Assembly (NCBI GenBank): GCA_000697665.1
Contig: KL197714.1
Span: 848,728-912,727, forward strand
DNA length: 64,000 nt
Origin: Jaapia argillacea MUCL 33604
Taxonomy: Eukaryota; Basidiomycota; Agaricomycetes; Jaapiales; Jaapiaceae
Reading direction: 5' to 3'
Each line of letters opens with the position of its first letter. The stretch's first letter is position 1. The position numbers and the translations under genes are program-made. Below, in pieces: positions 22,661 through 58,949 of the stretch. Under the pieces are notes generated by a model, which did not search any database, was not told where the DNA came from, and saw only the letters and a program-made list of their open reading frames with translations.

Positions 22661-22732
22661 GACTGCTAGGTATGGAAAGTACTGGTGCTGGTGGATGTGT
22701 TGTGACACTGATGAATGCGCTCTGGGGACACC

Positions 22733-23499: not shown

Positions 23500-24200
23500 C
23501 TTGACGTTGACATGTACCGCGAATACGTTGTATTTGCCAAAACGATAAGTGCCAGAAGAACTTAAATAATAGAAAGATTACGTAAGTACTTATTTATCGA
23601 TCGCCAGCCGCTTTTTCCTCCATGACCGAAGCCCCTCCGTGTCTGCGCAACTCTAAGATTATGAACGATCCAATGCTTTCTGCATGACAGACTTTTCAGT
23701 CACCAAGTTGTTCATAGGGTGTAGGAAGTGTGCGGAACAGAAAATGTAACTGATCACTTATTGGATGAAATAGTAATATGAGTTCGGGCTCATATTGTAG
23801 GATACCCTAACCCCGATGTCCTCCTTATGTCCACTGCTTCTCGACTTCCTGGACTGGCGGTCATCGACGACTATCAATCGGTTGGTTGTCCCCTTGAACT
23901 TAACCAACACGTAAAGTTTACCCCTGGGCCTGATGTTTGACCGAACAAGGGGGATCAGCCGTCTTGCTTTCACAGTTGTCAGTCCTTGTTCCTTACTCGA
24001 ATCCTCGTTCATTCCAGTTTGGCAGTCCGTGTGCGTAGGATTCGATCATTAGTTGTACCTGGCTGGTGGGGATCACACGTCATGTCACGGCGAGTTTTTG
24101 TTGCGTCGGACCCATGCGCATAGCTGTCTCGGGAATTTGTCAGCTGAAGGTTGGTTGATTCCATGTGACCCGAAGTTTGGGATTCATCGTCAGCCCAATG
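23500..24200. repeat. Duplicated non-coding block, copy 1
   Basis: About 700 bp with a diverged second copy at 27590-28325. Shared landmarks are TGCGCAACTCTAAGATT, CAGTCACCAAGTTGTTC, CGATGTCCTCCTTATGTCCA and GATCACACGTCATGTCACGG. No coding frame was seen in either copy. It ends where the carboxypeptidase pseudogene begins, marking the duplication junction. Confidence 0.75.
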
Positions 24201-24202
24201 GT

Positions 24203-24930
24203 GTTCCCACCAGAGGACTATGTCAATTACCTGAGTCTACCTTCGGTGATGGAAACGATCCGTGCGGAGACCTAGTCCGAGTTCCCCGATGCTCCGTATT
24301 ACCTAATTAAAACCACAGGAGATGTGCGTCTTGAATGGTGTCTCGAATGTGATCTACGTCTCACACACTGACTACGGGACGCGAGGAAGTGGCTACCGCA
24401 ACTTGGAGCACTCGCGAATTCGCGGTTGAAGATGTTCATTTGAGTAAGTCGTCTTGCTTTAGTCCAACTGAGTGTTGTTGACGGACAATTGACGTAGGCC
24501 GGCGACGCTAATATCAAGTAATCCCGAGCTTTTCTCTCATCCCTTGTTTCCCCAACCGATTTGTCGGTTTTGCCTGCTGTGATTGGTTGGGCGGCCATGC
24601 GCCGGTTCTGGCCATGGATATTGGTACGGCAGTGCCACTCTCCACAACACGCCTTTTATTAATATGGCGATCGGCGGCAAGGCGGTGGCTGCGATCCAGA
24701 ACTTCTCGTCTGCGTACGTGCAATATTAACCCTCCGATGTCAGGAAGTTGATATCGGCCGGTCTGCGTGATACAGGAGGGTATATGAATCAGGTCATGAG
24801 GTGGTATGTAACGTGCTGAGTTACTTCCTTGCGAGGTGCTCATCAATTTCCCTCAGCCGGCATTCCAACCCCAAGCCGCCCTGGAAATCTTTACTCAAGT
24901 CATTGCGGGGGAGCAACTCCATTCGGTGTA
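24203..24930 (+). pseudogene. Truncated serine carboxypeptidase pseudogene
   Basis: This is a copy of exons 8-13 of the S10 carboxypeptidase at 19187-21284, including the intervening introns. It starts abruptly inside exon 8 (PPEDYVNYLSLPSVMET) and has no first half, signal peptide or nucleophile Ser region. Within what remains there are premature stops, for example GACCTAG shortly after the start near 24271, and small indels, so it cannot make enzyme. Intron and flank similarity show that it arose by DNA duplication, not retroposition. The intact gene lies 3.7 kb upstream. Confidence 0.85.
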
Positions 24931-25331
24931 GAATGGTGCGACACCAGTAGATCAGGTTGGGATTATGACCTAACAGACAAATCCGAAATATTGGTGGCTT
25001 GTGTACGTGGTGAGGTGAAACCCGGGGTCTCCTTTCACCAGTCCTACACTTCCTTGAACAGGCATGTGCAACAACCTTAATCACCATGTCCAATACTTGT
25101 TGTGGTCCGAAAGGAAGTTGGCCCAACAGAACTCAATTACCCCACTTCAGAATCTCTTAAAAACCCAGAACACAAGCAAATATCAACAGATACGATCAAT
25201 GCTTTGAAACCAATAGCAACACAATACATTGTACAGACGAATTGCAGTTGAATGCAATGACTTTCTTCCCCGATTCCCGCCAGCCCACTAAACAACCAGC
25301 ATGCACAACTACTTTCAATATTCCTTCGGGT

Positions 25332-26221
25332 TCAAATGGCCAGCTCCCAGGCATCACCACTTCCGTTAACCCTGACAATGTCCTCGACATACACGGTTTC
25401 TCCATTGAGCCCCTTAGACACCTGAGTCCTAGTCTTGAACCCATCTCGAAGGTCAGCGAACCGAATGTCCGACCGATTGTCAAGACCGTTCGAAACGACG
25501 AGGTCACCATCGCTGGCGCGGCCGCGGGGACCAACAAAAGCGGTTTCGGAGATCGATATGGTGATCTGGTCGCTACCGATCAGGACGGCGGAACCATCGC
25601 GCAAATTGTTGTCGTGGTTGAGGAGCTGGATGCGGAATCTGGTGCGACCGACGGTGGAAATGACGAGTTTGTCAATAGCCGAGCTTTGAGGGCTCAAGGA
25701 GAGCTGGTCTGCTCCAGGAGAGAACCAGTACCTGCGCGGGTCGGACTTCGAGCGGATGAAGAACCTAGTAGAGGAGATAACGAGGCCAAGTCAGAATTCG
25801 TCCGACATGGAATATCCAAGGAAACCCACCAATTCCCGCTGATGTTGTCCGTGACGTAGGTATGGGGGATAATGCTCAAGTCCCTCCCACCTTTATCGTT
25901 GAGTAGCGTGAGGAAGAATCGCCCCACGAAGGCGCGCGAGCTGGTGACGAAATCGCCTCGGGTGAAGAAATCCCAAATATTGATCAGGTTGGCGTTGTGA
26001 GTGTAGAACTGAGGATTGATTCGGGTCATGCTGCTGGCCCATGGGCTAGGAGGAGTGGACACGACGCGCCACCACTCGTCACAGACGTCCTGGCTGGCGA
26101 AGGTAAGCAAAAAACGCCAGGTGTTGTCATCAGCAACCTGGAATGAGGAATCAATCAGCATCGAGGATTCAAAGAACGGTGTGAGACCCACGTTTTGGAC
26201 GTATGCGTAGAAGGGGCTCAT
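25332..26221 (-). CDS. Unrecognised ~256-residue protein, paralogue 2
   Basis: Three exons (26221-26192, 26137-25830, 25764-25332) have exactly the same lengths as in paralogue 1 and code for 256 residues. The product differs from paralogue 1 at scattered positions only, such as INPQFY for VNPQFY and DLVVSN for DLVASN. The reading frame is intact throughout and both splice sites are kept, so it is probably functional or very young. It lies in the duplicated block with its own upstream region, including the TATA box at 26314. It faces leftward like paralogue 1, towards the carboxypeptidase remnant. Function unknown. Confidence 0.8.
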
Positions 26222-26313
26222 TATTGCTGGGAATGGAAAGTGCTGGTGCTGGTGGATGCGCTGTGGTGCTGGTGGATGTGTTATGACACTGGTGAATGTA
26301 CTCTAGCGACGTC

Positions 26314-26322
26314 CTTTATATA
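26314..26322 (-). promoter_or_regulatory. TATA box of paralogue 2
   Basis: TATATAAAG on minus, 93 bp before the start codon at 26221. It sits in a stretch (CTTGGCCCCTCGCCGCTGTA) shared with the paralogue 3 promoter. Confidence 0.6.
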
Positions 26323-27589
26323 CAGCGGCGAGGGGCCAAGGTTGACCAGTGTTTGCCACAGATTGCCTGTGATTGTCCGGTCAAGGACAGGTTCCTGTTG
26401 ACATTCATGAAATGCTGCATTTCAGGGGAGGGAAGCTGTACTCACCTGACGCGGTCGCGTCTGGAAGGGGCGATCCGACTTTCCTCCCTCGGACGTCAAC
26501 TAGGACGTGGAAAATGCGTGAACTTTGACTACGCATCTCTGGTGGCGTGCACTGCCATGGATCACATGAGAATATAACCGGCACAAAGGTCCACCTTGCC
26601 AATTTCCAGAAATCCGTCGAGATAGGTGTGTACATGTGTCCAACGCAATGAAGACTCGCCATGACATGACGTCTGATCCCCATCACCGGGGATGAAGAAG
26701 GAGCGACAGGTGAGTGAATCTTGGGAATACGGACCGCCATACTTGAATGTTTGAACCAGTGAATATGGGACTAAGGCACAAGAACCTACCGTGAAAATGA
26801 AAACGCCGATCCCTCTTGTTCGGTCGAACATCAGGGGTATTACCCTTCACGCTTTTGTCGAGTTCCAGCCTCCAGTGAAAAGTCCAATCGATTGAACTTC
26901 ATGAATGATTGCTCTTCCTCGTAGAAGTCCATCATCCCGGGATGGAGATGTCCATTTCATTGACTGCGGACCCAAGTGTGTCTTGCATGTCGGTGGGTCA
27001 TATTCCCAGTACGCAGTGTACGAGTCAGTTCTGCTGAGTGGAGACTTGCGCGCCCAGACTCCATTGTATCCTTCAAAACTGCTTCGGGGTTGGTCTATAA
27101 GAAAACCTTAACTGTCACGCTGTATCGTCCACTTCACTTTGCCCAGACTATTTTCAAGGTCCCAAATCCTACCAGCACCTCGCCATGGAGGAAAATGTTG
27201 TCCGAGAGTACTAAACAGCCCCAATCCACAGCAAGAGAAATGAAAGAGGACGGAGGCAGACAGATTTGGTCACACCCAATCACAAACGTCGCGAGCGTGT
27301 GATAGTCGTAGCTGTTTCTCGCCGTTATAGGACCAAGGTGGTGATGTCTAACCGCGGAGGTAGGTTCGGAGCAAGCCTGTCTCCGGGCCCCAGTGAGGGT
27401 ATGATACATCCGACGCCGTGGAGATTCAAGATTGCAAGGAAGCAGGTTCAAACAGCATAAGACACAGAAGACAGTGAGTTTCGACGTCAGGTAGGAGAAA
27501 CACGGATCGAAGGTTTTGATGCGAGTGGTGGGAGGACCATACTGTTGTATGATTCAACACTACCAGGAGGTGTGGCCCGTGAGGATGGC

Positions 27590-28325
27590 GGCTCCTGACG
27601 TTGACATTTACCACGAATATGTTGCGTTTTGAAAATGATAAGTGCCTCAGGAGTCTATTAGTAATGGAAAGGTTAAGTATTTCCTGTATCGATTGCCAGC
27701 TGCTTTTCCTCCACGACCAAGGCCCCTGCTCCCGTGCGCAACTCTAAGATTCCTGGGTCAATGATTCTATGCTTTCCGTTTGTTTGACAGACTTTCCAGT
27801 CACCAAGTTGTTCGTGTACAGAGTGAAGGATCAACTTGCGGAAACGGAAATGTAACAGATTACTTATCTGATGAAATTAGTAATTCAAGTCCAAGTCGTA
27901 ACTTATTACGGATACCCTAACCCGATGTCCTCCTTATGTCCACTGCTTCTTGACTTCCTGCGCTGGCAGCCATCGACGACTTTCAATCGATTGGATTTGT
28001 CCCCTTGAACTTAACGAACACGTAAAGTGTACCCCTGATGCTTGACCGAACAAGACGGATTGGCCGTATTACTTTCACAGTTGTCAGTCCTTGTCCTTAC
28101 TCAAATCCTCGTTCATTGAAGTTTGGCAGTCCGTGTGCGTAGGATTTAATCATTAGCTGTGCCTGGCTGGCGGGGATCACACGTCATGTCACGGCAAGTC
28201 TTTGTTGCGTCGGACTCGTGTGCATAGCTGTCTCGACGACTCTCGGGAATTTGCAAGATGAACGTTGTTGCTTCAATACAGCCCTCCATGTGACCCAAGT
28301 TTAGGATTCATCATCGCCCTATGGT
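27590..28325. repeat. Duplicated non-coding block, copy 2
   Basis: Diverged copy of 23500-24200 with several small indels. In copy 1 the block runs into the carboxypeptidase sequence; here it runs into the promoter of paralogue 3, which points the other way. The right end is therefore an inversion or insertion breakpoint. Confidence 0.7.
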
Positions 28326-28569
28326 GCAATCCTTTTGTGTTTCGATGTGATGTGGTCCAGGTTTGTGAGCTTGGACTTCTTGAGGGCCCAGGTACCATGT
28401 CGGAGCTCCCTATTCCCGACAGGACAGCGACAGCGACAGGTAAGCACAACTTCTTGCCTCCCCCAAAACGCAGCAATTCATGAACGTCAATCTACAGGCA
28501 CATGTCCTAGACAGGACAGCTACGGATAATCTGAGGTAAACACTGGTCAACCTTGGCCCCTCGCCGCTG

Positions 28570-28579
28570 CATATAAAGG
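28570..28579 (+). promoter_or_regulatory. TATA box of paralogue 3
   Basis: CATATAAAGG, 92 bp before the start codon at 28671, in the same context as in paralogues 1 and 2. Confidence 0.55.
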
Positions 28580-28611
28580 ATGCCCCCAGAATATATTCAC
28601 CAGTGTCACAA

Positions 28612-28650
28612 CGCATCCACCAGCACCACAGCGCATCCACCAGCACCAGC
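28612..28650 (+). repeat. Short direct repeat in the 5' leader of paralogue 3
   Basis: CGCATCCACCAGCACCA occurs twice in succession just before the start codon. Paralogue 2 has the same doubled unit in its leader (about 26240-26280, minus) and paralogue 1 a shorter, single form. The unit lies between TATA box and ATG, so it is probably in the untranslated leader. Confidence 0.6.
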
Positions 28651-28670
28651 ACTTTCCATTCCTAGCAATC

Positions 28671-29578
28671 ATGAGCCCCTTCTACGCATACGTCCAAAAC
28701 GTAGGTCGCACGCCGTTCCTTGAATCATTGATGCTGATTGATTCCTCATTCCAGGTTGCTGATGACAACACCTGGCGCTTTTTGCTCACTTTCGCCAGCC
28801 AGGACGTCTGTGACGAGTGGTGGCGCGTCGTGTCCACTCCTCCTAGCCCGTGGGCCAGCAGCATGACCCGAATCAATCCTCAGTTCTACACTCACAACGC
28901 CAACCTGATCAATATTTGGGATTTCTTCAACCGAGCCGATTTCGTCGCTAGTTCGCGCGCCTTCATTGGAAGATTCTTCCTCACTCTTCTCAACGACAAG
29001 GGTGGCAGGACTTTGAGCATTATTCCCGAGACCTACGTCACGGACAACATCAGTGGAAATTGGTGGGTTTTATCTCGATTTCACAAGTGTTACCGTCAGG
29101 GATGCTGACTTTGGGTTGGTTCGCTATTGGCGTTTCTGCTCCCAGGTTCTTCATTCGCTCAAAGTCCGACCCTCGCAAGTACTGGTTCTGCCCAGGAGCA
29201 GATCAGCTCTCCGTGAGCCCTCAAAGCCAGTCCATCGACAAAATCGTCGTTTCCACCGTTGGTCGCACCCGATTCCGTCTCCAGCTCCTCAATCGTGACA
29301 ATAACTTGCGTGATGGTACGGCGGTTCTGATCGGCAGCGACCAGATCACCATCTCGATCTCCGAAACCGCTTTTGTTGGCCCCCGCGGTCGCGCTAGCAG
29401 CGGTGACCTCGTTGTTGCGAATGGTCTTGACAATCGGTCGGATATTCGGTTCGCCGATCTTCGAGATGGGTTTAAGACTAGGACTCAGTTGTCGAAGGGC
29501 CTCAATGGAGAAACCGTCTACGTCGAGGACATTGTGAGGGTGAATGGAAGTGGTGATGCCTGGGAGTTGGCTATTTGA
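28671..29578 (+). CDS. Unrecognised ~256-residue protein, paralogue 3
   Basis: Three exons (28671-28700, 28755-29062, 29146-29578) again measure 30, 308 and 433 nt. The product has 256 residues and starts MSPFYAYVQNVADDNTWRFL as in the other copies. It is the most diverged of the three (NRADFVASSRAF, YWFCPGADQLSVS, RTQLSKGLNG) but fully open. Its second intron is longer (83 nt versus 75 and 65 nt in paralogues 1 and 2). It is inverted relative to copies 1 and 2, so copies 2 and 3 are divergent. No function is known; keeping three intact copies suggests a dosage or variant effect. Confidence 0.8.
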
Positions 29579-30561
29579 TTTTGTAGTTCAGAATTTCCAA
29601 GGGGTTCTGGGGATTGGGTTCAGGAGGGGAGATAAGTTGCCATTCTGCATTCTGTACAATGTGTTTTGATTACTTGCGCGATGATAAAGTCTACGATGTT
29701 CCAGTGAGGTTGAGTGATCCGCCGTTTTTCGGCCACGTGGCCTGGATTGTGATGGCCGACTGATCGGCATTGACTCCGAGTCCACAAGAAATGCCAGGGA
29801 GTCCGAGTTCGTTCAACCTTGAAGATGGGTTACGACGCTGCCCTCGCCAAACCTTGCCATTACTCTCTATGTCAAAGTCAAACCCGAGCAGTGGTGTTAT
29901 CTCGACCACATTGTCCTGTGACGACACGCTTTGCGCACGCTCTGTTCACCTGGACCGCAGACCCGGGTACACGTTTCCACTCACTGGATGGTCATCCCAA
30001 CCCTTGAGACGTTCCTGCCTAATCAAGCATCAACAGGAAATGCGCTCCCTCTACTGCATGGCTATCCAAAAATGATCCCAAGGGTTTTTATTTTGTGCAA
30101 AGGAGGGACGTGACTTTGTCGGTACCAGTCGTTTTAGCAAGCCATGTCTTTTCGGATGAAAGAGGGGTAGCGTTCTCGCAAAAGACTTTTCGAATCCTTG
30201 GGAACTGGAGCTCCAGTGGACTTCGATATGGGACAACCCAGACGATTGTAGGACAAACCGGGCGCTTGTCGTCACCTTGTGTTGGACTTCGATCAGTTTG
30301 GTCGTGACCTGAAAGCGAAATCGGAGGTTTTACTCCACTGAACAGGGCTCAACAAGGCTGAGGTCGGCGTCGTGTTGAACCCTCTCGACGCGTTGGCCTT
30401 GTGTTCATTGCACCCGTCGCCGTCTCCACGCTCCCGATCGACCAATTCCACAGCTTGCAAACAGAAAATCATTTTTGCTGTCTTATAAAAAGGCGTCCAT
30501 GGAATTGATTTTCCAGCACTCACTACCTCCTCCGTCGCACCAGCACTTCGACAAAAACACA
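29579..30561. other. Intergenic, nothing recognised
   Basis: Nearly 1 kb after paralogue 3 with no similarity to the duplicated block and no coding stretch I can support. The last 100 bp contain CTTATAAAAAGG near 30480, a possible TATA box for the gene at 30562. Confidence 0.45.
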
Positions 30562-43701: not shown

Positions 43702-46655
43702 TCACGACCTCATCGACTCCCCATCCCCACCGTGTCCATGGCCATATCCCATCTCTTCTCCGTGCCCATGACTCCAATGGCTTGCAGAACGGCTGTGGCG
43801 ACTCTCCACAGGACTATGGCGGCTCTGAGAAGGGCTATGGCGGCTCTGCGAATGGCTATGGCGACTCCGTGAAGGGCCAGCATGTAAACTGGGATCCGGA
43901 ATATGATGGCTCACAGTCGAACTCCCACTATGTCGACTCGGAGCTCGACTGTGATAACTCTCCGCGGGACTGATCCTGCTCGGCACATGACTTGGGACGT
44001 GACTATGTCTCACCTGAGTCACCTGCCTCATTATCCCATCATCATGCTCGCCAATACCATTCCCAAGTAACCCTTCCTCTTCCTCACCACTCCTGGGCCC
44101 TTCATCCTCATCATCAAACCCAGGTTCCCCATCACTCCCACTATGATCGTGATGATCCTCATCACCATCGACGAGTCTCCTCCCAACCCTCCTCCTCCTC
44201 TCAATCCCCCTACTTCTCGATCTCTCAATGGGGTCCCTACCGGAAGGCGGAGGCCTACAAACCATCCTCCCAAGTCCTTCAACAATCCTAGCTCTCCTCT
44301 CCCTAGGAATATCAGGTCCCTTCTTCAGCTTCCTTCTCTCCTTAGCGTCGTACCTCTCTCCGCTCTCCCCGGTAACAATCATCATCCCGTCTCCACCTTC
44401 CCTAGGCTGCTTCTCATCTCTCCTCCCCATCTGCCCTTGTTCCCTCGCTCTCTGTCTCTCAAAATGTCGTTGATGCGCCAATGCACGCGCTTCTTCTTCT
44501 TCACGTTCGTCATCCGACAACCTCTTCGGTCGACGAGAAGACGAACCGAACCCGAAAAAACCACGTTTCTTCTTTGGTTTCTTGACTCGTTCACCTCGGT
44601 CACGTCCTTCGCGTTGTTCAGGGTCATTCTCAGCTTCTGCAACATATAATGGGAGAGGAGGGGGAGGAGGGGTGGGGGAACGATAAAGCACGACTGGAGC
44701 TATGAATCCTGTTTCGTCGGGTTGGCCCGGTAAAGGTGGTTGTGGATGTGATGGTGCCTCGGCTTCGTGAGGCATTGGAACAGGAGGAGCATCGCGATGT
44801 GATTGTGGTTGAGATTGCGTGCGGGAACGTCGAGGTTGGGATTGGGATTGGGATGGGTTCGATGGGTGACGGTCCCGAGAGGGAGGAGCTGGTGGGGGAT
44901 CATCTGCTTGTTCGATGACGCTCTGATCTCTACTATGTCCTCTATTCGCCCCATCAGCATGCCCACCACTCCCACCACTCCCGGCTCTCTCCCTCTCTCT
45001 CTCCCTAGCTTGTTCACCAGGCCATCGACTCCGATGAATATCGTGCGTCTGTCTTGGTCCCGCTCCTCTCGGTAAAACCTTTGGATGCTCCCCTCCCCCT
45101 CCTCCTCGATCATGTGTCTCCTGACCTGCCCCACCTCGACTCCCCCCACTAATATTCCTAGTCCTCTCTCCTTCCCCTCCTCCTCCACCGAGATGCCAAT
45201 GAGTCCTATGAACGTCATTGGTATGCCTCATACCAGCACCTCTCGGCAAAGTCTTTTGACCACCTGATATCCCCCTTTCCCGACTCGGTTCCCTTGCAGC
45301 GGGATGACCAGCCGTAAGGTCGCTGAGACTCGGATCTCGAGGAACGGGCCATTGGGATCTGTGGATGGCTTTGGTGCGGGTTGACACATGGGCTGTGGTT
45401 CCAGGCGGATGGTAGTAGAGATCCGCATCTCTTCGAACTTCTTGACCTCCACCTGGCGCACGAGGTTGGGTTGGGGTTCGCTGGGGGTATTGAGTTTGGG
45501 GTGGAGGTATAGGTGCACCGGCAGAAGTCGTTCGACTCCTGATGGGCGGCGCACTAGAGTACCTTCGGCCATTTTGATTCTCGTCATATCTGGCTGGAGG
45601 TGGGATGGGAGCTGGTGCGCCGTATTGTGGCTGTGTCACCTGAGGATAGTTATGCTGAGCGCTAGCGTTTCGTAACCTCCTCCTCCATTCTTCTTTTCTC
45701 AGTTCCAACTCTGCAGCTCGCCTCTCTTTCTCCTCATCAAGCATCTCGTTTCTCAGCCCTTCGATCAATCGATCTCTGTCTTCACAGTCCTGACGATGAG
45801 CTTCGAGGATGGCCATTCGCTGATCAGGGTACACGGTCCCACTTTGCATCAATCGCAATAACTTGACTTCGGCGCGAGCGGCCTGATCGTGGAGACGTTT
45901 GAGGGCTTCGGCGCGGGATGCTGGTGGGGGGAGTGTTGGAGAAGAGGGGGAGGAGATGATGGAGGGTGCACGACGGGGAGTTAGGGGTGCGCGGTATGGT
46001 TGGAGGGAGGGGGCGCGGCGGATTGAAGGGGCTCGGGAGGGTGGACTTGGAGGAGGTATCATGAGGGGTGGTTGGTCGTCGTCATATTGGTGGGTGGCGA
46101 ACTGGACGCTTTTTTTTGTTCCTCTCTGCAGGGTTGATTGAGGATATGAAGGAGAGTCGGTCAATCACTATGACTACGACGAAGAAAAAAAACCAAAACG
46201 GAAGAAGGAGTCACAAGACTCACCCGTTCGAGATTTGCTTCGAGTGGTGAAGCTAGTCCGAGAGTCTTTTCAATGGTGATCCTTTCTCTCTGGGTAACAT
46301 AACTCCAGTCACCAATCCTCAAGCCAGCATCCTGCAATCGCTTGTCCCATTCCTGCCTCGCTCGAATCATGAGTTCATCATCCAAAGCTCGTTCCACTGC
46401 ATCCTTATCCCTGTCCAACCTGCCATCCCTCCCCCCGTGATGCAGTAGATCATCGTAGTTGTTATTGGAGGAAAAAGAATCCGAGTTTGGAGAACCGATA
46501 TTCTGATCTAGTTCTTGGAATACTTGGGCTCGTTGTGCGTCTCGTTCTTGAAGGTGGTGGGCCAGCCAGCCTTCGGAGAAGTCACGCCACTGGTTTCTGA
46601 AAAGCGAGGAGGATGCTGCGTCGGGTAACGTCGACGGACCTGCAGGCGACGACAT
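43702..46655 (-). CDS. Cluster gene A: helical N-terminus, disordered protein
   Basis: Two exons (46655-46224 and 46125-43702) code for 951 residues. Exon 1 (144 codons) has a W-x2-F-x3-W motif (QWRDFSEGWL) near residue 22. A helical block of the form EW-x3-L-x7-DW-x3-T lies near 100 (RQEWDKRLQDAG, GDWSYVTQRE). Both recur in the neighbouring genes B and C. Exon 2 begins RGTKKSVQFATHQYDDDQPP and is almost all low complexity. It contains repeated RAPSIRRAPS proline-arginine runs, a coiled coil (RHDEEKERRAAELELRK region, ~230-300), Arg/Gly-rich segments, acidic patches and a His/Ser repeat tail (SRHSPSQSRHSP). Long stretches of this exon are open on the opposite strand too because of codon bias; those are shadows. 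Function unknown. It lies 244 bp downstream of gene B. Confidence 0.7.
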
Positions 46656-46899
46656 AGTGCGGACGAAAGTTGTACCAGACGGTGAGCACAATGTGACTAT
46701 CAATGCGTCGCCGTCATTGAGTGACCGAAATGGAAATCGCCACGTGAGGTGTGACTCGATCACGTGCTTTATTTAATTCGATTTATTCGGATTTATCTCG
46801 AATTCTTCGATCTGTATGAAAGCACACTCGAACAAGTTGAACTAGTGCTCAAAGGTGTCTCCGATTGTTTACATGCAAATGAAACCGAGCTCCACAAAG

Positions 46900-49096
46900 T
46901 TAGAAACGAGGAAGGTTGACACAGAGACACGACGCCTGCTGACCATCCCTTTCACGATTCCGAGCTGACCGCCTCTCCTTCACCTTGTCCCACCTCCTCA
47001 TCCCCCGATCCAGCATCGCAACAGCCAATCGATACCCCAGCTCACCACCAGCGTGTCCATCGGGGTACGGCACCAGCCCCATATATCGTTCCGCAGCGGG
47101 ATGGACCCTTTGAGTTTGTGGACCAAATCGTGCAATGTCGCCCGTCACTACCAGACCGTCGGGATCGCCATCGTCGCTGTGGACTACTGGAACGTACCCG
47201 AGCTGGCCTTCTCGAGCGAGAACATCGAACACAGTGTCGGGCTTGACACTTTCTTCAGAGGTCTCGCTCGATGGAGATCTCCGGTGAGTGCGCAAGGTGG
47301 GTTGGATATGGGTGGGCCTTGCCTTTTCGCCTCTGGGTTGGTTGGTTGCCTGATGTTGATCTCGAATGCGTTCCGAAGGTCTAGGAGGGGCCTGTTGAGG
47401 AATCGGTTTCTTAGTCGGTGCTTCTGGGACAATCGGTGCTGATCGTAAGGGGGCAAGGGGAACATGTTGTCGAGGAGCCGATGGCTGAGTATTGGCCCTC
47501 GGTCTACTGGGTCCTGCTTCAGCTTCGCCGAGAGAGTGTCTCACAGCTTGTCCAGCTGGCGCTGTCGCTGCTCGGAGTGGTGGCGGACGTTGTTGGGTAC
47601 GTCCATCCCCAGGGCTCGTCGAATTTTGAGCAGGTCTTACATTCAACCTATCCTCCAACTTCCTCCCTCGAACATTCCGATGCTTCAACAAATCTTCCAC
47701 AATCCACCCACAATCATCCTCATCAACAACCTCCCTCATCTTCCTACCCATCTTCTTCGCCAACCTCTGAATAGAATCCTCGTGCCTTTTTATCATCCGC
47801 TTCCTGGTCGTATCATCCAAAGCTTGCATCGCAGGCATATTCATCGTTTGGATGAAATCGACATCAGATTTGGACGCTTGGTGATGGTATTCGAGGATGA
47901 TGTGTTCGAGGAATTCATCGTCTGTCGGTTTGAGCAGGGAAGGTGATGAGGAGCGATGTGGAGCTTTTGGAGGTGGTTGGGGAGGTCGAGACGACTCATC
48001 GTTCCTACGAGGTAGTGTGTGATGTCGAGGTGGGTCAACCCGAAGCCCTGGCTGTGCTTGGGATGGCTCACTGCTCCTACGATCACGTACAGGTCGGGTG
48101 CCTTGTTGCACAGTAGTAGCCTCGTGTCGATCTCGATCGGTTCGAGAGGGTATAGCTGCTGCAATGGACATGCGAGGAAGAGTAGGTCGCTCCCTGGAGG
48201 ATTCAGGGCGTCTCTCTACGGGTAATCTGGATGATTCACGAGCAGCTGTGCCGGGTCGTTCCGAAGGCGATTGTTGAGCCGGGTGAGTGGGCGACTGAGA
48301 TGGGCGTGTAGATTCCCCATTCCTACGTGAAGGCGAGGGATTGGGACGACGCTCAGGCGGTTGGGCGGTAGATTCACGGCGTGTGCGTGAAGAATCTTCT
48401 CTGCATTCGACTCGTGGTACTGGCATGGGTACTGCATTACTGGGTTGACTCGTGGGTTGTAGACGATGTGTGGGGACGCTCGAGGAACTCTATTGGTGAA
48501 TAGTAAACTTAGCTTCAGATCTCATAGATAGCGTGAGCGGTAGATCTCACCTCGAGATGTGCAGCTGGAAAACTCCCATCTGCCCTGCCTCGCGTTTCTT
48601 CCGCTCGAAGGCCTGTTGGCTGAGCTTGTAAAGTCGGGGGTTGAAGAGTCCTAGCCATTTCTCTGCGCTCTTCTTCGGTCATATCCGTCCAATCCTCCTG
48701 AACCAAACCCTTCTCCTTCAACTTCATTTGCCACACGTGCCAGGCGAAATCATTCAGCTCGATCGCATGTCGAGCAGCCTTTTGGTTAAAGCGCTCCAAG
48801 TCAGCTTTGTACTGGGAAAAAAGGCGGGATTTCTCCTCGTAGGATGCGGGTGCTGGAAGGGAGTTGGCCCTTTCGAGATTTTGGGAGTATTGATCCCAGA
48901 TACGACGTTGATAGTTAGTTCGAACAGCCTCCTTCTCCTTGCGCTTGTAATCGTACCAGTTGAGAAATACTTCCCATTGGGCTCGACATTGGTGAGATTT
49001 CATGTTTGCGTCGAGGTAGCCGGGTGGGGGGGAACGTGTGCGACGAGTGGCAAGGTGAGTACGAGGTAGATTCCGGCGAGTATGATCTGGGGGCAT
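46900..49096 (-). CDS. Cluster gene B: helical N-terminus, disordered protein
   Basis: Two exons (49096-48551 and 48489-46900) code for 711 residues; an in-frame Met at 49111 would add five. Exon 1 (182 codons) has the same N-terminal plan as A and C. AQWEVFLNWY comes first, then a long charged helix, then FAWHVWQMKLKEKGLVQEDW with TDMTEEERREMARTL. Exon 2 is Ser/Pro/Arg-rich. A central conserved-looking helical stretch (FLEHIILEYHHQASKSDVDF to DCGWIVEDLLKHRNVRG) and a folded-looking C-terminus (VFDVLAREGQLGYVPVVHSD, ELGYRLAVAMLDRGMRRW) interrupt the disorder. No known domain recognised. It is transcribed in the same direction as A and C. Confidence 0.7.
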
Positions 49097-49919
49097 GTTT
49101 CTTTGCCGCACGAGTTACGAGATGGATAGGACGTCGTTGATTTCGCCAGGGGAGACGGATAATGTTGGAGCAGGGAGGAGAACGGATAGGTTTTATGTTT
49201 CGTTAGGACATACTAGCCAGGGGTGTAGGTCCCAACGAAAGGCTGAAAGGTCGTGTATGTGACTAGGGTTTCTCATAGGGAGAGTAATTCGGAAAGGCCT
49301 CGAGCTCGGGCATGCAGGTAGGCAACGTGGTGAAAGAAGACACCATGCCCCCAATCGATTTCAGTTTGCCGTGAACATGATGAAGGAAAGTTAGCGCTGG
49401 TGAAACACGAGCAAGAGATAATTAGCGATAGGGTGTGATATTATGCGTAGATAGCCAAAGCCGGGGTTTGGGTCATGAATCATAATACACATGATCCTGG
49501 CATTTTAGCGCTGGTGATTGCAGTGCATACGATGAGAGCTTGACGCCGTCCGTCTCAGCTGAGGCTGGTGGAGGAGGACACGCTCGGTCAACCAAATTCG
49601 GGTCATGCTCCTTTCGACAGGACTGTCAATCACGACTTCGCATCGCTGTTTTTCAGCATCCTTGCCCTCGTCCTTATCACTCATCGCATCCCTGATATCG
49701 ATGCTCTCCGAGCATGCCTTTTGTGTGTCCCCAACCTACGCACGAGAGTAAACCAATCGCTGAGGCGATGTTAGTTTCAAAAGGCAGATCCACTCGACTC
49801 ATTATGCAGTGTCCATCCAGACGATCCCAAGAATAATAGCAATTATCGCCGACCATACAGTAAGTGAACCAAAACCATTTCAACCCAACCCATCGTGAAA
49901 CCTATCATCCTAGCCAAGA
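49097..49919. other. Intergenic, nothing recognised
   Basis: An 823-bp gap between cluster genes C and B on the minus strand, holding the promoter of B and terminator of C. No coding stretch or repeat was noted. Confidence 0.45.
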
Positions 49920-52900
49920 CTATCTCCGCAGTCGCGTCAACGTGGGTGAAGCCGCCTTGTTCTTGCCCTTTGCTTCGTTCCCAGCGCCTGCAGCTCCGCG
50001 AGTGGGCGTACCAGGCTTTTTCTTCTCTGCACCTACCAACGAGTCCGTTCTCGTCCGACCTTTTGCTGTCGTAGGAGCGGGAGTCGCAGCCGCAGCAGCC
50101 CGCGTCGTCGTGGGAGACGGAGCCGCAGTCTTTCGCTCCGCTGAAAGGACACGCTTCTTCTCCTCGGTCGCAGCTGCCTCTTTCTTGACCGCCTCAGTCG
50201 ATCCTTTCTTCGCCCATGCTTGCTTTTGTGTCAGAGCCTCCTTCGCTGCAGCTAGTTCAGCTTGAACTCTCTGGTGTGCATTCGTCGTCAAGGTCGATTC
50301 TTTAGCCATCGATCCTCGTGAGAAAACTTCCTGCGGAGGTGAGGCCCTGGCTGACTGCCACAGACGATCGTTGTCTTCCACAGGAGATTCCACGGGGCTC
50401 GACTCCTCATCCGCCACAGTTGGATTGAAGGGATTGAATCGAATATCTCGTTCAGCTTCGAACTGCCCACCCATCATCCAAGGCTGACTTTGACCGTCGC
50501 CCAAAACCGACGCCATTGGGAGCGAAGGTGGCTCCTCACTCTTCCCTCCACTAGGTGCTCCCGCGGCGACGAGGAAGTCAAAGAAAGCGGCCCCTTCTCC
50601 ATCATCTTCCTCCTCGTCAGAGTCGATAGCAGGAGGTCGCCAGAACTGAGGCATTGCAAGGCTGGGAGAAGGTTGCTTGATACCATCGCCTTCGTCTTCG
50701 TCCTCTGCTTCCTCCACATCAGGAACGACTTCAACGACTTTCTTTCCGACATCCTTCTTAGCAGAAGTAGCCGGTCGCCATATTTCCGGCATCCCGTTAC
50801 TCGGCGAAGGCGCTTTGTTTCCCTCCACACCCCCCTGGATGCTCTCAAGAACCGACAGGGCTTTAGCGTCCTTCTTTCCGACGTCTTTCTTCGCAGGAGC
50901 AGCGGGGCGCCAAAATTGGGGACCTGACATGCTGGGAGAAGGTTGCTTGAATCGCGCCTCCTCCATATGTACCTTCTCCGGAACCACAGAGACTTTCGTG
51001 TCCTTCCCAGCATCCTTCTTCGTAGAAGCAGCAGGTCGCCAGATTTGGGGATTCATAGCAACCGGGGAAGGTTGTTTAAACCTCTCTTCGTTCTCCTCCG
51101 GAACATCAACGACTTTGGTTTCCTTCTTCGCAGAAGCACCAGGTCGCCAGATTTGGGGATTCATCGTGACCGGGGAAGGCTGTTTGAATCTCTCTTCGTC
51201 CTCCTGCACCTTCTCCGGAACATCAACGACTTTGGGTTCCTTCTTCCCAACATCCTTCTTCAAAGCAGCGGAAGGTCGCCAAACCTGTGGCGACGACTTG
51301 AACCTGTCTTCCTCGTCTCTTTCTGGGACTGAAACGATCTTGACGTCCTTCCTCCCACTAGTGACCTCCGAGGTATTCGTGGCTGATGATAGCCTCCGCA
51401 TTTTCCCTTCCGCCGCCTTCTCCACCGCCGCTTTCAAGTTCTGACGACTATCCGCGACTCCTCGTTTTTGCTTTCCGACGGCCTCAGTTACTTTGCTTTC
51501 GTGCATGGCGTGCACCGAACGCGTAGAATCTTCATTCTTGATCCCAGCACCGGGCCTCCCTCTCATCATGTCGGAAGCACGAGGAGTACCAACACGTGCA
51601 ACGGGTTCGAGACGTGTGGCTTTGAGAGGACGATCAGGCTCCTTCTCTTTGCGGGATGGTGTCGAATCGCGTGCGGGTAGATGGCGTGCGGTTTCCACGG
51701 TCGGTTTGGCTGGACCTGGTGTCGGTTTGATCTGCCATCCGGTCGTCCTCGCAGGTTCTGCATGTTTGGGAGGCTCCGCGCGTCGCACTGGCTCGACATT
51801 ATGGACGGGCTGGACGGGTTTCGTTGGCTCTTTTCTCCCTCCTTTCACAGCCTCATACTCCGCTAGTCGCCGATTCTTCTCAACATCGTTGGCGTCCGTC
51901 CTCTGTTCATCGAGATAGGTGACCAGCTCCCTCATCTCCTTCTCGTGCTCGGCTATCAGAGACTGCTTCTTCTCCTCATCGGTAGCTTTATCCTTGTCGT
52001 TCAAATCTCGATAGAGGCGAATGTCGAGTTGTGCTGCGTAGTGGTGGTAGCGGCGTATCTGCTTCTCCTTGGTCTCGAATTTGAACGTGAAGAACTCTGA
52101 TTCTTCGTAGGTCTTGTCGTAACCTTCGATGAGTGCGACTGGGATGAAATGGCGGGGATGACCGGTCAGCGTTTCGACAGGTTTAATGGAGGGTCTGGGT
52201 TCGATGGGTGAAGGAAGCGGGACGGAGACGTTCTGTTTCTCCTTGGTGTAGCGCACGAAGGAGCTTTGCGAGTACGTGCTTGTCCCGCTTTGGTTGGTTT
52301 CCGTCCTCTCGATCGCTTGGGCCTCCCGAACCCACCTCACATATGCCGGGTTGTGAACAGGATCAGTGGGTAGAGGTGGTCGCAGGTTGATTGGGGCTTT
52401 GTGCTAGATTACATACAGGTATGCCACCGCGTTTCTTGAAAGTAATTCACGACTCACCGAGCTCTTGTCTTTGGAGTTCCTTCCGAGGGTTGCCGGATCC
52501 ACTGTGACGTGAAAAGGGGCTGAATGTTCCACTTCGGAGTAGGACGAATCCTCTTCTTCCTCTCCCCACCCGTTACGTGTCGCAGAAGAGGAGGCAGCAG
52601 TTCGACTTGACTCGGAGTCTTCATAATCGTTTAACTCCTCTCCTGTCGTCAGCGATAGTGCCTTCTGAACAGCCCTGATCTCCTTCTCCGTAATGTCTGT
52701 CCAGTCCCTCATCTGGAAGCCAAGTATTGCGAGTTGGACCTTCCACTCGGCTTGAGCTCGAACCGCAAAGTCCTCTTCGACGACCTTTGCAATATTTCGT
52801 TTATCTCGTTCGTACTCCGTTAGTAGAGACTGGATGTCTCTCGTCTTCTGTTTGCGATGCATCTGTTCTATCAGCTCTGTTTCCATTTCCTCCTGGCGCG

Positions 52901-53000
52901 TACCCATTTCAGCCCTCTGCCCTGAGAGCCACTCTTCAAAGACATTCCACAACTGACGAATCTGCTCAGAAGGAGAGGGATGCTTTTCGGATCGAGACAT
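49920..53000 (-). CDS. Cluster gene C: helical N-terminus, WRP-repeat disordered protein
   Basis: Two exons (53000-52458 and 52403-49920) code for 1008 residues. Exon 1 (181 codons) has the shared elements QLWNVFEEWL near residue 20 and AEWKVQLAILGFQMRDWTDI with TEKEIRAVQKALSL near 110-130, then an acidic stretch. Exon 2 starts HKAPINLRPPLPTDP and has a helical block around 240-330. It then has a strongly basic/acidic disordered region with six copies of a P-x-(V/I/F)-W-R-P motif, mostly followed by KK(D/E). The C-terminus is Ala/Thr/Lys-rich (ATPAPTTAKGRTRT) and ends LTRLRR. It faces away from gene D, so C and D share a 1.45-kb divergent promoter region. Function unknown. Confidence 0.7.
50629..51295 (-). 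repeat. Tandem WRP motif repeats inside gene C
   Basis: Six protein repeats of roughly 30-45 residues are read on minus from 51295 to 50629. Their cores are PQVWRPS, PQIWRPG, PQIWRPA, PQFWRPA, PEIWRPA and PQFWRPP. Most are followed by KK(D/E) and a Val-rich (KVVDVPE-like) spacer and then an FKQPSP-type lead. DNA between repeats is similar enough to suggest internal duplication. The Trp is invariant. Confidence 0.8.
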
Positions 53001-54453
53001 CCCGACAGTCTAGTATATGACGATTAGAGCTTTCTGGACGATCTTTCTGAACTGCCGATGGACGCTGAATTTTTGCTGGATATGGTAGATAGTCAAGAGT
53101 GCCTCGATGCACCATGAACTTCCAGCACGCCTCGTGTTTGTCTGTCTGCAACGTTAAGCGGACCGGATGAAGACGGACATAATTGGGCGACTCGGGGATA
53201 TAAGCGGATATCGATATCTCATTGTTGTGGGCTAGATGATCAGCATGGTGCACTATGGTAGACTGCCAGCTGAAAACGACTAGCACAAGTCAACCTTCCA
53301 ATGAGCAAACTGAAGGAAGACCAGTTGAAGACGCCGTAGGAATCCTCACCGAATGATTCCGACAACTATTTACGAAATCAGAACGGATATCCGTGGGGTG
53401 TGGGGATTGTCCATGCGACTGGACCCGTTTACATCGCTACGTCAGGCGATTCACATCAGGTCGAGAATTCAGATGTGTGGACACAGAATTGGAACTCTGA
53501 GAAAGTAAAGCATATGGTTCGACTCGAAGAGACGTTTAGGAGTCGTCTAGGGCACCAACACTTCTTCGACGTCATTCACAGGGACGAGGGGGAGCGAGAG
53601 CTGAAATGGGGAATTTGAGATGGCTGTTCACCAAGACGTCGGTTACCGCCACTTGATGGCGAGCGAAGCTGTTGAGGCGAGTTCGGGCCGTAGAAGAATG
53701 TATTTGGGGGTGCAAACAGGCGGGAAGAGAACAAGCAACGAGACGTTTATGCCACATCACTGCCATTGACAACAAAACGAAACAAAATTCTACACAGGCA
53801 GCGCAGCAGAAGCGCCACGGGTCACAAGCCCGAAATAAGACAAGCCGGACATGTCGTTCTCCGACGAAACGCAGCATGGGGATGGGCGTAGGCTGTTTCA
53901 TCTCGAGGTCCGTCTCGTCTGACGGATCTGAAAATAAGTCTGGTAATAGACAGCCAGGACTGTATTATTGAACTCTGAGCAAAAAAAAGAGGAGGAATGG
54001 ATTGGCTTACGGAGCTTACCATATATGGTGTGCTTGATATCTGAACTTGTAGTCTCTTGTAGTGGAAAGGATCCGAGCTTGGGGCTTGACTGCAGCCATC
54101 ATATTCGATCAAAGGTCGTCGATGGCCTATCCCATTGTCTAACATCGGCAATATTGGAGGTAAGTTCTTCCACATCGTGCAGAACGACGGAGGAGGGCTA
54201 AGATTTCATTTCAGGCGAATCGGAGCTGTTAGGGCGCGTGTAGGCTACACGAGGCTCGATCAACCTCAGGGACTCGGTCAGTCGTCACACCTCCAGTACG
54301 GCAAGCCCTAAACTGTCCACCGCCATTCTCTGTGTCTTCGATTTTTCCCACCTTGTTAGCTCGTGTCTTATCCTCCATACCCAAGTCTCACATTTCTACA
54401 CGTATCGTGTGCTCCGCGTCCGATACCCCTACTAGCACTCCCCCCGTGCTTTC
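53001..54453. other. Divergent intergenic region between genes C and D
   Basis: A 1.45-kb region between the starts of gene C (minus) and gene D (plus). It should carry both promoters. No coding stretch with coherent splicing was seen on either strand. Confidence 0.5.
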
Positions 54454-57400
54454 ATGGCCACTTTGGCGGCTAGACCTACCCAACCCGTCATCAGTGCAAG
54501 GATCCTTGCCGATTTCGAGCCTGACGACCAATGGAAACACTCGCTTCGCAGGGAGATCGAGGCCAATCTTGGTACCATGGTCGCGGATGCAAAGCAAGAG
54601 CTTGAAGATAAGCTGAGGGCTGCTCCTGTCGACGAAGACACTCGCGAACGATTGACTCGCGACCATATGCAGACTATGGCCACCATCCGTCGCATTGCCG
54701 AAGAGCAATTTCAGGCCGCTCTTGAACGCGAACGGCAGGAGCGCCTCTGGGCTTCAGGTCAGTTGGCAGAAGGAGAGTGGTCAGAAGCTTTGAAGAGGGA
54801 GCAGCAGGCGATCTATGACAACATCAAGAAGGAGGGTGAGCAGTCACGATCGAGAAGTAATACCGCCTCTGGACCTCTGCCCAATACCAAAGAAGTCACC
54901 CCCCCACCTCCATCTGATGTGTCCGCCCCATTTGTAGAACCAAGTTCCAGTCCTATCACCCGACCTCCCATCCGACATCGTCGTCAATCAGAGACGCCCA
55001 CAATTGAAGAAGGTGGGATAGTATGATCTTGTACTTGTCAGCCATTGCTAACGATGATAACAATTGGTCTAAAGGAGTAGTATCTGGAGAGACGATGCCA
55101 GAGCGCTGGATACCCGCTACATCTCCTGATTTTACTGAACGTCGACGAAGTCGGACTCGAGAGGAGGATGGAATGGCTGCTCGAAGGCCTAGCACTGGTT
55201 CTGTGATGAGTGCAACCTCAATACCAGAAATATGGCGACCGAGCATACCTCTCGCCGAGCCATCCACAACAACATCTAGGACTTTTGCTCAAGCTAGTTC
55301 GACTTCGGAGGGTCTAGACAGGCGAGCCAGTGTCTCTAGCATAGGCAGAGCATCTGTCGTCTCAGTTTCGGATGCTTATCAAAGGCAGTCTCCAGATCGA
55401 GGTGGTGCCGCCCCTTCGGAAGCTGAGAGAGAAAGGGCGGCGGTCGAAGCTGCCGAAGTCCAATGGAGTGGAATTGCTCGGTCTCGAGACCGTCAGAGTA
55501 AGTCTGGGGTCGACATGCGACATGTTAGCGGGGATATTCGAAACGATGAGCGTCCTATTGTGGCTAGCCCGACCTCCAGTGCTCCAGCAGTGTCACCTCG
55601 TTCCGTTGAGAATCAGCGGCCGTACTCATCGATTATCGCAAGTAGACCCACGGCTACCAACGACAGGACGTACTCGGTGGATGAGGGTTCACGACCCTTG
55701 CAAGCCAGTCCGAATTCGAAAGGATGGCATGGCCCCCGATCGCCAGAAGATAGACGTTACGACTCTGCAGTTTCATACTCACCCGAGGATCGTCACAGAG
55801 TATGGCGCCCACCCTCTACCCAGGATCTTCGTCCTGTCGACTCCCCTCAGCGTACCCACCAATCAAATTTGACTGCAAGCAGACCCATCCCCACGAAGCG
55901 TTCATTCACAGTCGATGACTCCTCCCGCCAATCACAACCGAGTTCAAGTGGTCGAAACTTGTATGGTCCTCCCCTGCAGGATGGCCGCTACGAACGCATC
56001 TCGCCACCCGAGGATCTCTCCAAGAAGCGATCTTTCACGACCGATGAAACCAATCGTCAACCTCACGCGGGCCCAAGCGGGCGAGCCTCCTACGGACAGC
56101 CGCCTCAGCTTGATAATCGTTATCACAGAATATCCTCTCGCTCACCTCCTGATGAACCTCCCCGACCCTGGCAACCCCCTTTGCGCTCCCAGCCTTCAAT
56201 CCAAGAATCAATTGGAGAAGGCCACTATCGCCCGAGTCAACTTCCGAGCACAGCGAGCAGGCCTATCCTTGGTCGACGGCCATCCGCATCAGATGACCTG
56301 GGATACCAGGCAAGCCCTACTTCCAAGGCATTCGTCGCCACCCGAGTCTTACCTGAAGACGATCGCTCCGTACACTCATCCTCTCCCCGATCTCCTCCTG
56401 AAGATTATAATCCGGCCTGGAGAGCTCCGAGTCTACGATCGCAGTCGTCTCTGCGCGACGTACGATACGGACCACCTTCTGCAAACCCATCCGAGCCGCC
56501 AATACCGGACATCTTCGATGAAGCCGATGAACTTTCAGAAGAGGAATCTGATGAGGACTTAGGGGAGTGGCAACAAGGTAGCAGTGCGGAATCTGAGGTG
56601 GAGTCCGACGAGGAAGCTCGAATGGAGGAGGAAGCTCGCCGTGAGGAAGAGGAGAGACGGCAGGAGGAAGATAGGAAGCGAGTGGAGGACGAGAAGAAGC
56701 GTAAGGAGCTCGAGCTGAGGCAGATGGAAGAGATGAAGCGGAAGGAGGAAGAGGTTAAGCGAATGAAGGAAGTAGCAAAGAGGAAGGCAGAGGAGGCGAG
56801 ACGGCAAGCGGAGGAAGCCAAGCGTCGAGAGGAGGAAGCCAAACGGATGGAAGAAGAGCTGAGGCTTCAGGAGTTGGAAATGATCCGGCAGCAGGAAGAG
56901 GCAAGACGATTGGCGGAGGAGGCGAAACTGAGAGAGGAGGAAGAGGAGCGGCTCAGAGAGCAGGAAGCAATTAAGAGGAAGGAAGAGGCTAAGAGGAGGG
57001 CTGAAGAACAGAAACGCAAGAGGGAAGAAGCCAGACGACAAGCCGAGGAAAGGCGACAAGCCGAAGAGGCGAAACGCCGAGCTGAGGAGGAGGAGGCTAG
57101 ACGTTTGGCTGAGGAGGAGGAGGCGCGACGCTTGGCTGCTGAGGAGGAGGCGAGACGTTTAGCTGAGGAAGAGGAGGCGAAACGTTTGGCTGAGGAAGAA
57201 GCGAGACGTCTGGCAGCGGAAGAGGAGGCCAGGCGTCTGGCAGAAGAGGAGGCAAGACGTTTGGCGGAGGAGGAGGCGCAACGCCAAGCTGAAGAAGCAA
57301 AGCGTGTGGAGGAGGAGCAACGACTGGCAGAGGAAGCGAAGCGAAGAGAGGAGGCAAAAGCGAGAGAGCAAGCGAGGTTAAAGCGGTTGGAAGAGCGGAG

Positions 57401-58949
57401 GCAGGCAGAGGCTGCAAGGCGTAAAGAGGAGGAGGAGGCAAAGCGAAAGGAGGAGGAGGAGGAGGAGGAGGAGGCAAAGCGCAGGGAGGAGGAAGAAGAG
57501 CTAAAGCGAAAGGAGGAGGAGGAGGAGGAAACAAGACGCAAGGAGGAGGATGCAAGACGCAGGGATGAGGAGACAAAGCGTAAGGGATGGATGAAAGAGC
57601 GGGAAGCTTATCGCAAGAAAGAGGAAGCTAGACAACGGCAAGAGTCTCTGAAGCGTAAGGAGGAGGACAAGCGACGTCGGGAGCAGGAGGCTAGACATCT
57701 AGAAGAACAAACGCGCATCCAGGAGCAAGAAGCGAGACGCATAGAGGAGGAAGTGCGGCAGAAGGAAGATGAGGCGAGGAGGCAAGCGGAAGAAGCTAGG
57801 CGTCAGGCAGAACAAGCCAAACAAGAAGCGGAAGAGGCAAGAAGGAAAGCAGAGGAGGCGAGCCGCAGGGAGGATGAAGCGAGGCGCAAAGAGGAGGCTG
57901 CCAGGGTGAAGGAAGAAGAAACTCGCAGAAGAGAGGAGGAAATACGAAGGCGAGAAGAGGAGGTCAGACGACGCGAAGAGGAACTGCTGCTCAAGGAGCA
58001 GAAAGTGCAACAGGAGGAATATCGCATCAGAGAGGAGGAGCTTAGGCTTAGAGCCGAGCGCCAGAGACAGGACAGCTTCGGGAACTCGTCTGATGGCAGA
58101 TATTCCGCGAGTCAGTGGGCAGGACTTCAGCGCAGTGGATCCACGAGCAGTTCTGCAGGGGACCGAACTAGCACGTCCAGCAAAGCAAGTTCGACATCAA
58201 CGTGGTCATCGAGTACCTCGGCCACGAGCAATTCAGCCGCGAGTAATACTTCCCCCACTCGTCAGAACGGCAATGGACCCAGTTGGGCTTCGTGGACCAA
58301 TGCTAGTCCTCCGAACTCGAATTGGACCAACGCCAGCCCTCCCAATTCCAACCGACCTCCACCCCCACCTGCAGGAGGTTCTTCTAGTACAACGCCTAAT
58401 CAAAGATCTGGTGGCGCATCCAAGACGGCATCACAAGGGGGCCCCAGTTCATATTCCTCGTCGAATTCCTTCTCGGAGGCGGAGTGGACACGAAGGCAGG
58501 AGGAGCAAGCAAGAAAGCAGCAGGAGCAGTTCCGTATGGAACAAGAGCGTCTTGAAAGGGAGCGACAGGCGAAGATGTCTAAAGTGTTGAGTAAAGAGGA
58601 CGTGATCCAGCTATACCAGAGGCACGAACGACAATGGGGGATCATCAACGGTGCGGAAATGCTCACTTGGGACAGCTTCCCGTGGCCCATGTTCAAACGT
58701 CCAACGTCTCCGGAAGACATCACGACCGTCGCTATCGGTGCCTATGTTTTGTCGCCTCATTACCCAGGCGACAAAGTGGGGAAGGACCGTATCAAGGAGC
58801 ACATAAGGCGCTGGCATCCAGATCGCTTCGAAACGAAATTGCTGCCGAAGGTCGTGGAAGGTGATCAAGAGAGGGTGAAGGAAGCTGCGGGCGTGGTTGC
58901 AAGAGGATTGAACGAGCTGCTGACGCGGTCGAACAGTGTATTTGGATGA
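54454..58949 (+). CDS. Cluster gene D: giant charged-helix protein with NFKBIL1-like C-terminus
   Basis: Two exons (54454-55012 and 55075-58949) code for 1477 residues. Exon 1 holds a helical N-terminus (DDQWKHSLRREIEANLG, then RERQERLWASGQLAEGEWSE) that loosely follows the block seen in A-C. Residues ~190-680 are disordered, with MPERWIPATSP, IPEIWRPSI and VWRPPS motifs like those of gene C. Residues ~680-1190 are an uninterrupted run of Glu/Arg/Lys/Ala predicted to form a very long single helix or coiled coil. A Ser/Asn-rich linker follows. The last ~115 residues are folded: IQLYQRHERQWGI, LTWDSFPWPMFKRP and IKEHIRRWHPDRFETKLLPK (HPDRF near 1434). This order resembles the C-terminal domain of NFKBIL1 and has a J-domain-like HPD. 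Function unknown; a scaffold or spacer is likely. Confidence 0.8.
56620..58080 (+). repeat. GAGGAGGC-rich repeat coding for the charged helix
   Basis: About 1.45 kb of purine-rich sequence made of imperfect units such as GCGAGACG plus GAGGAGGAG. It codes for (E/A)EEARR(L/K)AEE-type repeats. A pure (GAG)n-like run occurs near 57455. It is in frame throughout exon 2 of gene D, and the reverse strand is open in all frames as a shadow of the codon composition. Confidence 0.85.

What the first reader, a model, noticed from the sequence alone, without database searches (positions are those of the whole stretch)
43702..58949. Cluster of four related giant disordered proteins with a common two-exon plan
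Genes A, B, C (minus, head-to-tail) and D (plus) fill 15 kb. Each has a short first exon of 144-186 codons followed by one intron and a very long exon. The first exons of A, B and C share W-x2-F-x3-W (QWRDFSEGWL, QWEVFLNWY, LWNVFEEWL). They also share a second block of the form EW/AW-x3-L-x7-DW-x3-T-x2-E. D has a looser version. The long exons differ almost completely. A conserved head on rapidly diverging bodies suggests a multigene adaptor family, perhaps a structural complex or a recognition system. No known family came to mind.
Basis: partly seen in the sequence, partly recalled or inferred. Interest (0 to 1): 0.75.

Follow-up and report, generated by a model that had tools for sequence, protein, structure and literature searches.

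The report
Helical-head gene cluster beside HPD gene
In a fungus of the mushroom class, three neighbouring genes and a fourth on another contig share a conserved front part, predicted to be helical, joined to long tails predicted to be mostly disordered, and sit beside a larger gene whose widely conserved end module carries a chaperone-type His-Pro-Asp motif; they likely form a scaffold, but no function has been shown.

Summary
The core observation holds and can be sharpened. The genome is Jaapia argillacea (Agaricomycetes). A, B and C are spliced gene models with homologous first-exon heads: each is found by a profile of the others at E 3.1e-8 to 7.6e-15 among 2857 ORFs. A fourth member, E, lies on another contig. 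The head is predicted to be a long helical hairpin and had no significant match in Pfam, NCBIfam, PDB or the protein searches.

Corrections: the spacing is W-x2-F-x2-W in B, C and E (x3 only in A). The long exons are not wholly different: B and E, probably C, perhaps A, share a second module; B and E a third. D is another kind of gene. Its head is only a tentative distant relative; the rest is a linker with a WRP motif shared with C, a 496-residue charged stretch, and a C-terminal module with an invariant His-Pro-Asp, found across Agaricomycetes.

Best reading: A-C and E are likely co-assembling scaffold proteins, perhaps partial copies of D, with D a tether that would recruit a chaperone. The family is shown; assembly, origin from D and chaperone recruitment are inferred. 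Clustering in other species could not be tested.

The parts
46224..46655 (-). Gene A exon 1 (144 codons); head = residues 18-137 at 46245-46604
   Evidence: Gene model; head homology
43702..46125 (-). Gene A exon 2 (to stop); uncertain second helical module residues 211-300 at 45658-45927; rest P/S/G/T/Q/N-rich, compositionally disordered
   Evidence: second module borderline
48551..49096 (-). Gene B exon 1 (182 codons); head = residues 34-160 at 48617-48997
46900..48489 (-). Gene B exon 2; second module residues 366-475 at 47611-47940; third module VFDVL-REG-LGYVPV-DPDGLVV at about 47140-47247; both shared with gene E
52458..53000 (-). Gene C exon 1 (181 codons); head = residues 11-124 at 52629-52970, predicted helical hairpin
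49920..52403 (-). Gene C exon 2; probable second module residues 276-375 at 51822-52121
   Evidence: leave-one-out only E 0.24
50634..51290 (-). Gene C: six copies of P[QE][IVF]WRP, spaced 36-46 residues
54454..55012 (+). Gene D exon 1 (186 codons + 1 base); tentative head-like stretch residues 21-130 at 54514-54843
   Evidence: against it (three-member profiles)
55075..58949 (+). Gene D exon 2; linker with PEIWRP (55221-55238) and looser WRP-like sites within 55104-56426
56598..58085 (+). Gene D residues 695-1190: 496-residue E/K/R-rich stretch, 10% hydrophobic, no strong heptad period; long helix is inferred from composition
58572..58946 (+). Gene D C-terminal HPD module (PWP core, RWHPDRF)

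Best explanation
Genes A, B and C are a tandem family with homologous first-exon heads, predicted to be helical, on tails predicted to be mostly disordered, with one dispersed relative (E), and they likely act as co-assembling scaffold proteins beside D, a gene with an Agaricomycete-conserved end module that may share their ancestor. Shown: head homology of A, B, C and E; the second and third modules of B and E; the WRP motif in C and D; the invariant HPD of D's end module. Inferred: (1) A-C arose by copying D's front half (head and WRP linker) without the rod and HPD module, then diverged fast; (2) the hairpin heads are the surfaces by which these proteins bind themselves or each other; (3) the tails recruit partners by short motifs, C and D docking one partner through WRP sites; (4) D's charged stretch is a long stiff tether that would present its HPD module to an Hsp70-type chaperone.
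For: Heads; predicted hairpin from a three-row alignment, pLDDT 84, pTM 0.68, helices 2-39, 45-81, 94-103. Relative E with the order head, second module, third module; a putative phase-0 intron in the linker after its head. WRP: six strict copies in C; in D's linker one strict copy (4 of 20000 shuffles reach it) and three by a relaxed pattern (0 of 20000; pattern chosen after seeing D); other ORFs hold 0 strict and 7 relaxed in 219,673 residues. A genome-wide DNA pattern for some of its codons gave 6 matches, 5 of them in C. HPD invariant in 58 aligned rows, D plus 57 of the 120 listed relatives; D in a clade of 74 of 128 rows. D's head resembles A and C (z 3.5-4.2) but not B or E (z 0.2-0.5). 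No ORF in the stretches around the other nine HPD genes matches the head profile better than E 10.
Against: With three-member profiles D's head falls to E 0.15-0.18 or is not listed; pairwise it is no better than ordinary charged helices; its intron phase differs. No Pfam DnaJ match to D's module and no J-domain chain in Foldseek's list. Nothing tests binding, location or expression. The heads had no relative in the protein searches.
Confidence: 0.27

Rival explanations
1. A-C (with E) are a lineage-restricted orphan family, fast-evolving tandem duplicates with their own unrelated function; D is merely a neighbour whose charged helix resembles their heads.
For: D's head does not beat charged-helix controls pairwise and is weak or absent with three-member profiles; different intron phase; D's module lies in a widespread Agaricomycete clade while the heads found no relative outside this genome.
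Against: Full profile match of D's head at E 2.6e-4 with 0 of 4000 shuffles as good; WRP motif shared by C and D.
Confidence: 0.38
2. D and its paralogues are RNA-processing factors like vertebrate NFKBIL1, whose C-terminal HPD module acts in splicing complexes rather than with Hsp70; A-C would be accessory nuclear proteins.
For: The C18 paralogue (L035) has a DDEEYAEW ... IPWP ... RFHPDKF layout that I recall from NFKBIL1 (recall, no call); a reference title inside PMC10082069 (passages) links NFKBIL1 to alternative splicing.
Against: No NFKBIL1 sequence was available to compare; no Pfam family, so no ankyrin repeat, in D at E <= 0.01.
Confidence: 0.2
3. The head resemblance is only a common helical-hairpin composition, so A, B and C are not a family.
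For: The predicted fold is a generic helical hairpin with no specific PDB match; the first motif alone occurs 16 times in 2857 ORFs.
Against: Similarity far above plain and heptad-preserving shuffles and above 55 charged-helix windows; leave-one-out recovery; B and E share two further modules.
Confidence: 0.03

Closest known systems
J-domain (DnaJ/Hsp40) proteins
   Same: D's C-terminal module has an invariant His-Pro-Asp between two predicted helices; the top PDB sequence match of its paralogue profile is KIAA0730 protein 1iur (a J domain, by recall) at E 0.01, followed by a DNAj-like protein at 0.15.
   Different: No Pfam DnaJ match; no J-domain chain in Foldseek's list; unrelated receptor chains score nearly as well (E 0.17), so that match is weak.
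NFKBIL1 (IkBL)-type C-terminal module
   Same: PWP ... WHPDKF layout (recalled, not tested).
   Different: D has no Pfam ankyrin match and a long charged stretch.
Agaricomycete HPD-module proteins of unknown function, e.g. NEOLEDRAFT_1074426 of Neolentinus lepideus
   Same: D's module is 73% identical to it and D lies in the same clade.
   Different: Only relatives of up to about 1.75 times the module's length could be returned, so the rest of D was not compared.

Membership tests
A/B/C/E head family (defined here) | A, B, C, E: both W motifs and match to the head profile | tested here: met
A/B/C/E head family (defined here) | D: match to the head profile | tested here: inconclusive
   E 2.6e-4 and 0 of 4000 shuffles with four members; E 0.15-0.18 or unlisted with three; fails pairwise controls
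A/B/C/E head family (defined here) | D: both W motifs | tested here: not met
   D's first exon is not among the matches of either pattern
J-domain proteins | His-Pro-Asp between two helices | tested here: met
   Invariant in 58 rows; helices on both sides in the model
J-domain proteins | Match to the Pfam DnaJ model | tested here: not met
   Not among the matches at E <= 1 for 10 modules and 5 relatives, nor for D
J-domain proteins | J-domain fold | tested here: inconclusive
   Confident model (pLDDT 91, pTM 0.81); no J-domain chain in Foldseek's list; second look uninformative
J-domain proteins | Stimulates Hsp70 | not testable with these tools
   Needs biochemistry
NFKBIL1 family | Ankyrin repeats before the C-terminal module | tested here: not met
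   No Pfam family at E <= 0.01 in D exon 1 or exon 2
NFKBIL1 family | Sequence match of the C-terminal module to NFKBIL1 | not testable with these tools
   No NFKBIL1 chain among the 60 of 69 PDB matches shown; resemblance is recalled

The most novel reading that the evidence does not exclude
The cluster encodes a self-contained, chaperone-serviced scaffold: A-C are rapidly evolving partial copies of a conserved Agaricomycete tether, D. All are held together by hairpin heads, C and D dock one partner through repeated WRP motifs, and D brings Hsp70 in to remodel the assembly. That would be a new type of fungal structural system with an old hub and species-specific arms.
Probability: 0.1. Interest if true: 0.7.

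Novelty: new variant of a known kind. Interest (0 to 1): 0.4.

Why it matters
Mushroom-forming fungi carry many conserved but unannotated gene families (PMC10949477, passages seen). D's end module is widespread in the class, keeps a chaperone-type motif and matched no model in the Pfam copy used here; one of 120 listed relatives bears a precomputed accession, PF26405.1, which one search did not reproduce and which I could not identify. It is a testable unknown. A fast-diverging family beside a conserved gene that may share its head gives a handle on how disordered scaffold proteins arise.

Full report
Setting. The window lies at C6:848728-912727 of a 43.7-Mb genome held in 95 contigs. A gene about 7 kb past the window's end (L027) contains, letter for letter, protein P0006, which NCBI names JAAARDRAFT_125793 of Jaapia argillacea MUCL 33604. 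The organism is therefore J. argillacea, order Jaapiales, class Agaricomycetes.

Gene models. Splicing the ORFs gives A 951 aa, B 711 aa, C 1008 aa on the minus strand and D 1477 aa on the plus strand. The introns are GT-AG by reading, phase 0 in A-C and phase 1 in D; there is no transcript evidence. C and D are divergent, start codons 1.45 kb apart. No Pfam family at E <= 0.01 and no NCBIfam family at E <= 0.001 was found in the exons of A-D or in E (D's exon 1 without its last, split codon).

The head family. Heads of A, B and C align far above plain and heptad-preserving shuffles and above all 55 control windows, which are overlapping pieces of charged, helical-looking sequence from D's rod and the HPD paralogues. 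Single-head searches of the genome found one further member, E, at C5:381606-383540 (L025:3607-5541), matched by B's head at E 1.8e-14. E also carries B's second module (46% identity over 93 residues) and a third module (57% over 57 query residues). In leave-one-out profiles over 2857 ORFs of the window and 13 fetched stretches, each head is found by the other three at E 3.1e-8 or better. The two W motifs co-occur in 4 of 2857 ORFs, these four (the T-x2-E part of the second motif was not in the pattern); the first motif alone has 16 matches, so it is weak evidence by itself. E probably has a 66-bp in-frame intron of phase 0 in the linker after its head (a reading of the sequence).

Second module. 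A 90-110-residue stretch of the long exons: B-E z 32.5, B-C 7.0, C-E 5.7 (1 of 500 shuffles as good), A-C 7.9, A-E 5.6, A-B 1.2. Leave-one-out profiles find B (8.6e-12) and E (7.8e-18), but C only at 0.24 (best domain 0.0073) and A at 0.071, where an overlapping frame inside A's own gene scores better, 0.011. Against the 55 controls B-C, B-E and C-E hold up from both sides; from A's own side 4, 24 and 48 of 55 controls reach A-C, A-E and A-B. I count it as certain in B and E, probable in C, uncertain in A.

D's head. Its first exon matches the four-member profile at E 2.6e-4, the next ORF being at 4.6, and 0 of 4000 shuffles reach its score. Against that, three-member profiles give D 0.18 (without B), 0.15 (without E) or do not list it at E <= 1 (without A, without C), and 20 and 15 of 55 controls score as high against D's head as A and C do. 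I call the relation tentative. No ORF around the other nine HPD genes matches the head profile better than E 10.

Linker and rod. C carries six copies of P[QE][IVF]WRP at 36-46-residue spacing; D's linker carries PEIWRP and looser sites. The strict motif is reached in 4 of 20000 shuffles of D's linker; a relaxed pattern, chosen after seeing D, has three matches and is reached in 0 of 20000. Residues 695-1190 of D are 34% E, 31% K/R and 10% hydrophobic, suggesting a long charged helix (inference).

D's C-terminal module. The genome holds nine other places with this module (read): seven at E 2.1e-9 or better, C25:114953 at 0.0015 and C6:1168831 at 0.011. Four lie on C20 in two pairs (about 7 kb and 1.5 kb apart), and one lies on C6 about 12 kb from D. 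A ten-row profile found 425 proteins at E <= 0.001, the window's own included (120 listed); every listed row that names an organism names an Agaricomycete, by my own knowledge of the names. In a quick tree of 128 rows D falls in a clade of 74 with SH-aLRT 100, with Neolentinus, Plicaturopsis, Stereum and many others, while the nine other Jaapia copies fall outside (few columns, many open forks, several long branches). H82, P83 and D84 of the query are invariant in 58 aligned rows. All eight D-clade relatives that I read, chosen mostly for a longer front, keep an EW ... QQE-x-FR-x-EQE stretch before the module, as D does. The model is confident (pLDDT 91, pTM 0.81). Pfam DnaJ does not match and Foldseek listed no J-domain chain; the profile's top PDB sequence match, 1iur, is a J domain by recall, at E 0.01, with unrelated chains at 0.17. 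I therefore say HPD module or J-like, and do not file it as a J domain.

Mechanism. The predicted hairpin heads, tails disordered by composition, a repeated short motif and a rod ending in an HPD module fit a scaffold or tether whose parts meet through the heads and recruit partners by motifs. None of these steps is shown. The gradient of head similarity (D nearest A and C, none to B and E) fits A-C having come from D's front half; the intron phase and the three-member profiles do not.

Limits. No other fungal genome could be searched for gene order. The protein searches need shared exact words, and the head-profile search admitted only short proteins. No expression or binding data exist here.

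Noticed in passing
window 20416-29587: A gene-like unit in three copies (about 20416-23249 +, 24053-26846 +, 28149-29587 -); matching ORF pieces are 41-98% identical; the seven ORFs of this region that were scanned have no Pfam match at E <= 0.01. Probably a local duplication, unrelated to A-D.
   Followed up: partly
window 8648-10789 (-): Protein with an RRM followed by RING and IBR fingers; weak CCCH-finger matches (E 0.006-0.009) in adjoining minus-strand ORFs up to 12255.
   Followed up: no
L029, L030 and L031 (contig C20): Four HPD-module genes in two pairs on contig C20, with coiled-coil-like stretches in front: a second local expansion of the D-type module.
   Followed up: partly
L035:4845-6098 (C18): HPD-module gene whose layout I recall as NFKBIL1-like (DDEEYAEW ... 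IPWP ... RFHPDKF), possibly the NFKBIL1 orthologue (recall).
   Followed up: no
P0101 in the list: The only listed relative of D's module with a precomputed Pfam accession (PF26405.1); the Pfam scan here did not reproduce it and I could not identify it.
   Followed up: partly
L033:1 to about 5365 (C25): Long run of N directly downstream of an HPD-module gene, so neighbours there cannot be read.
   Followed up: no
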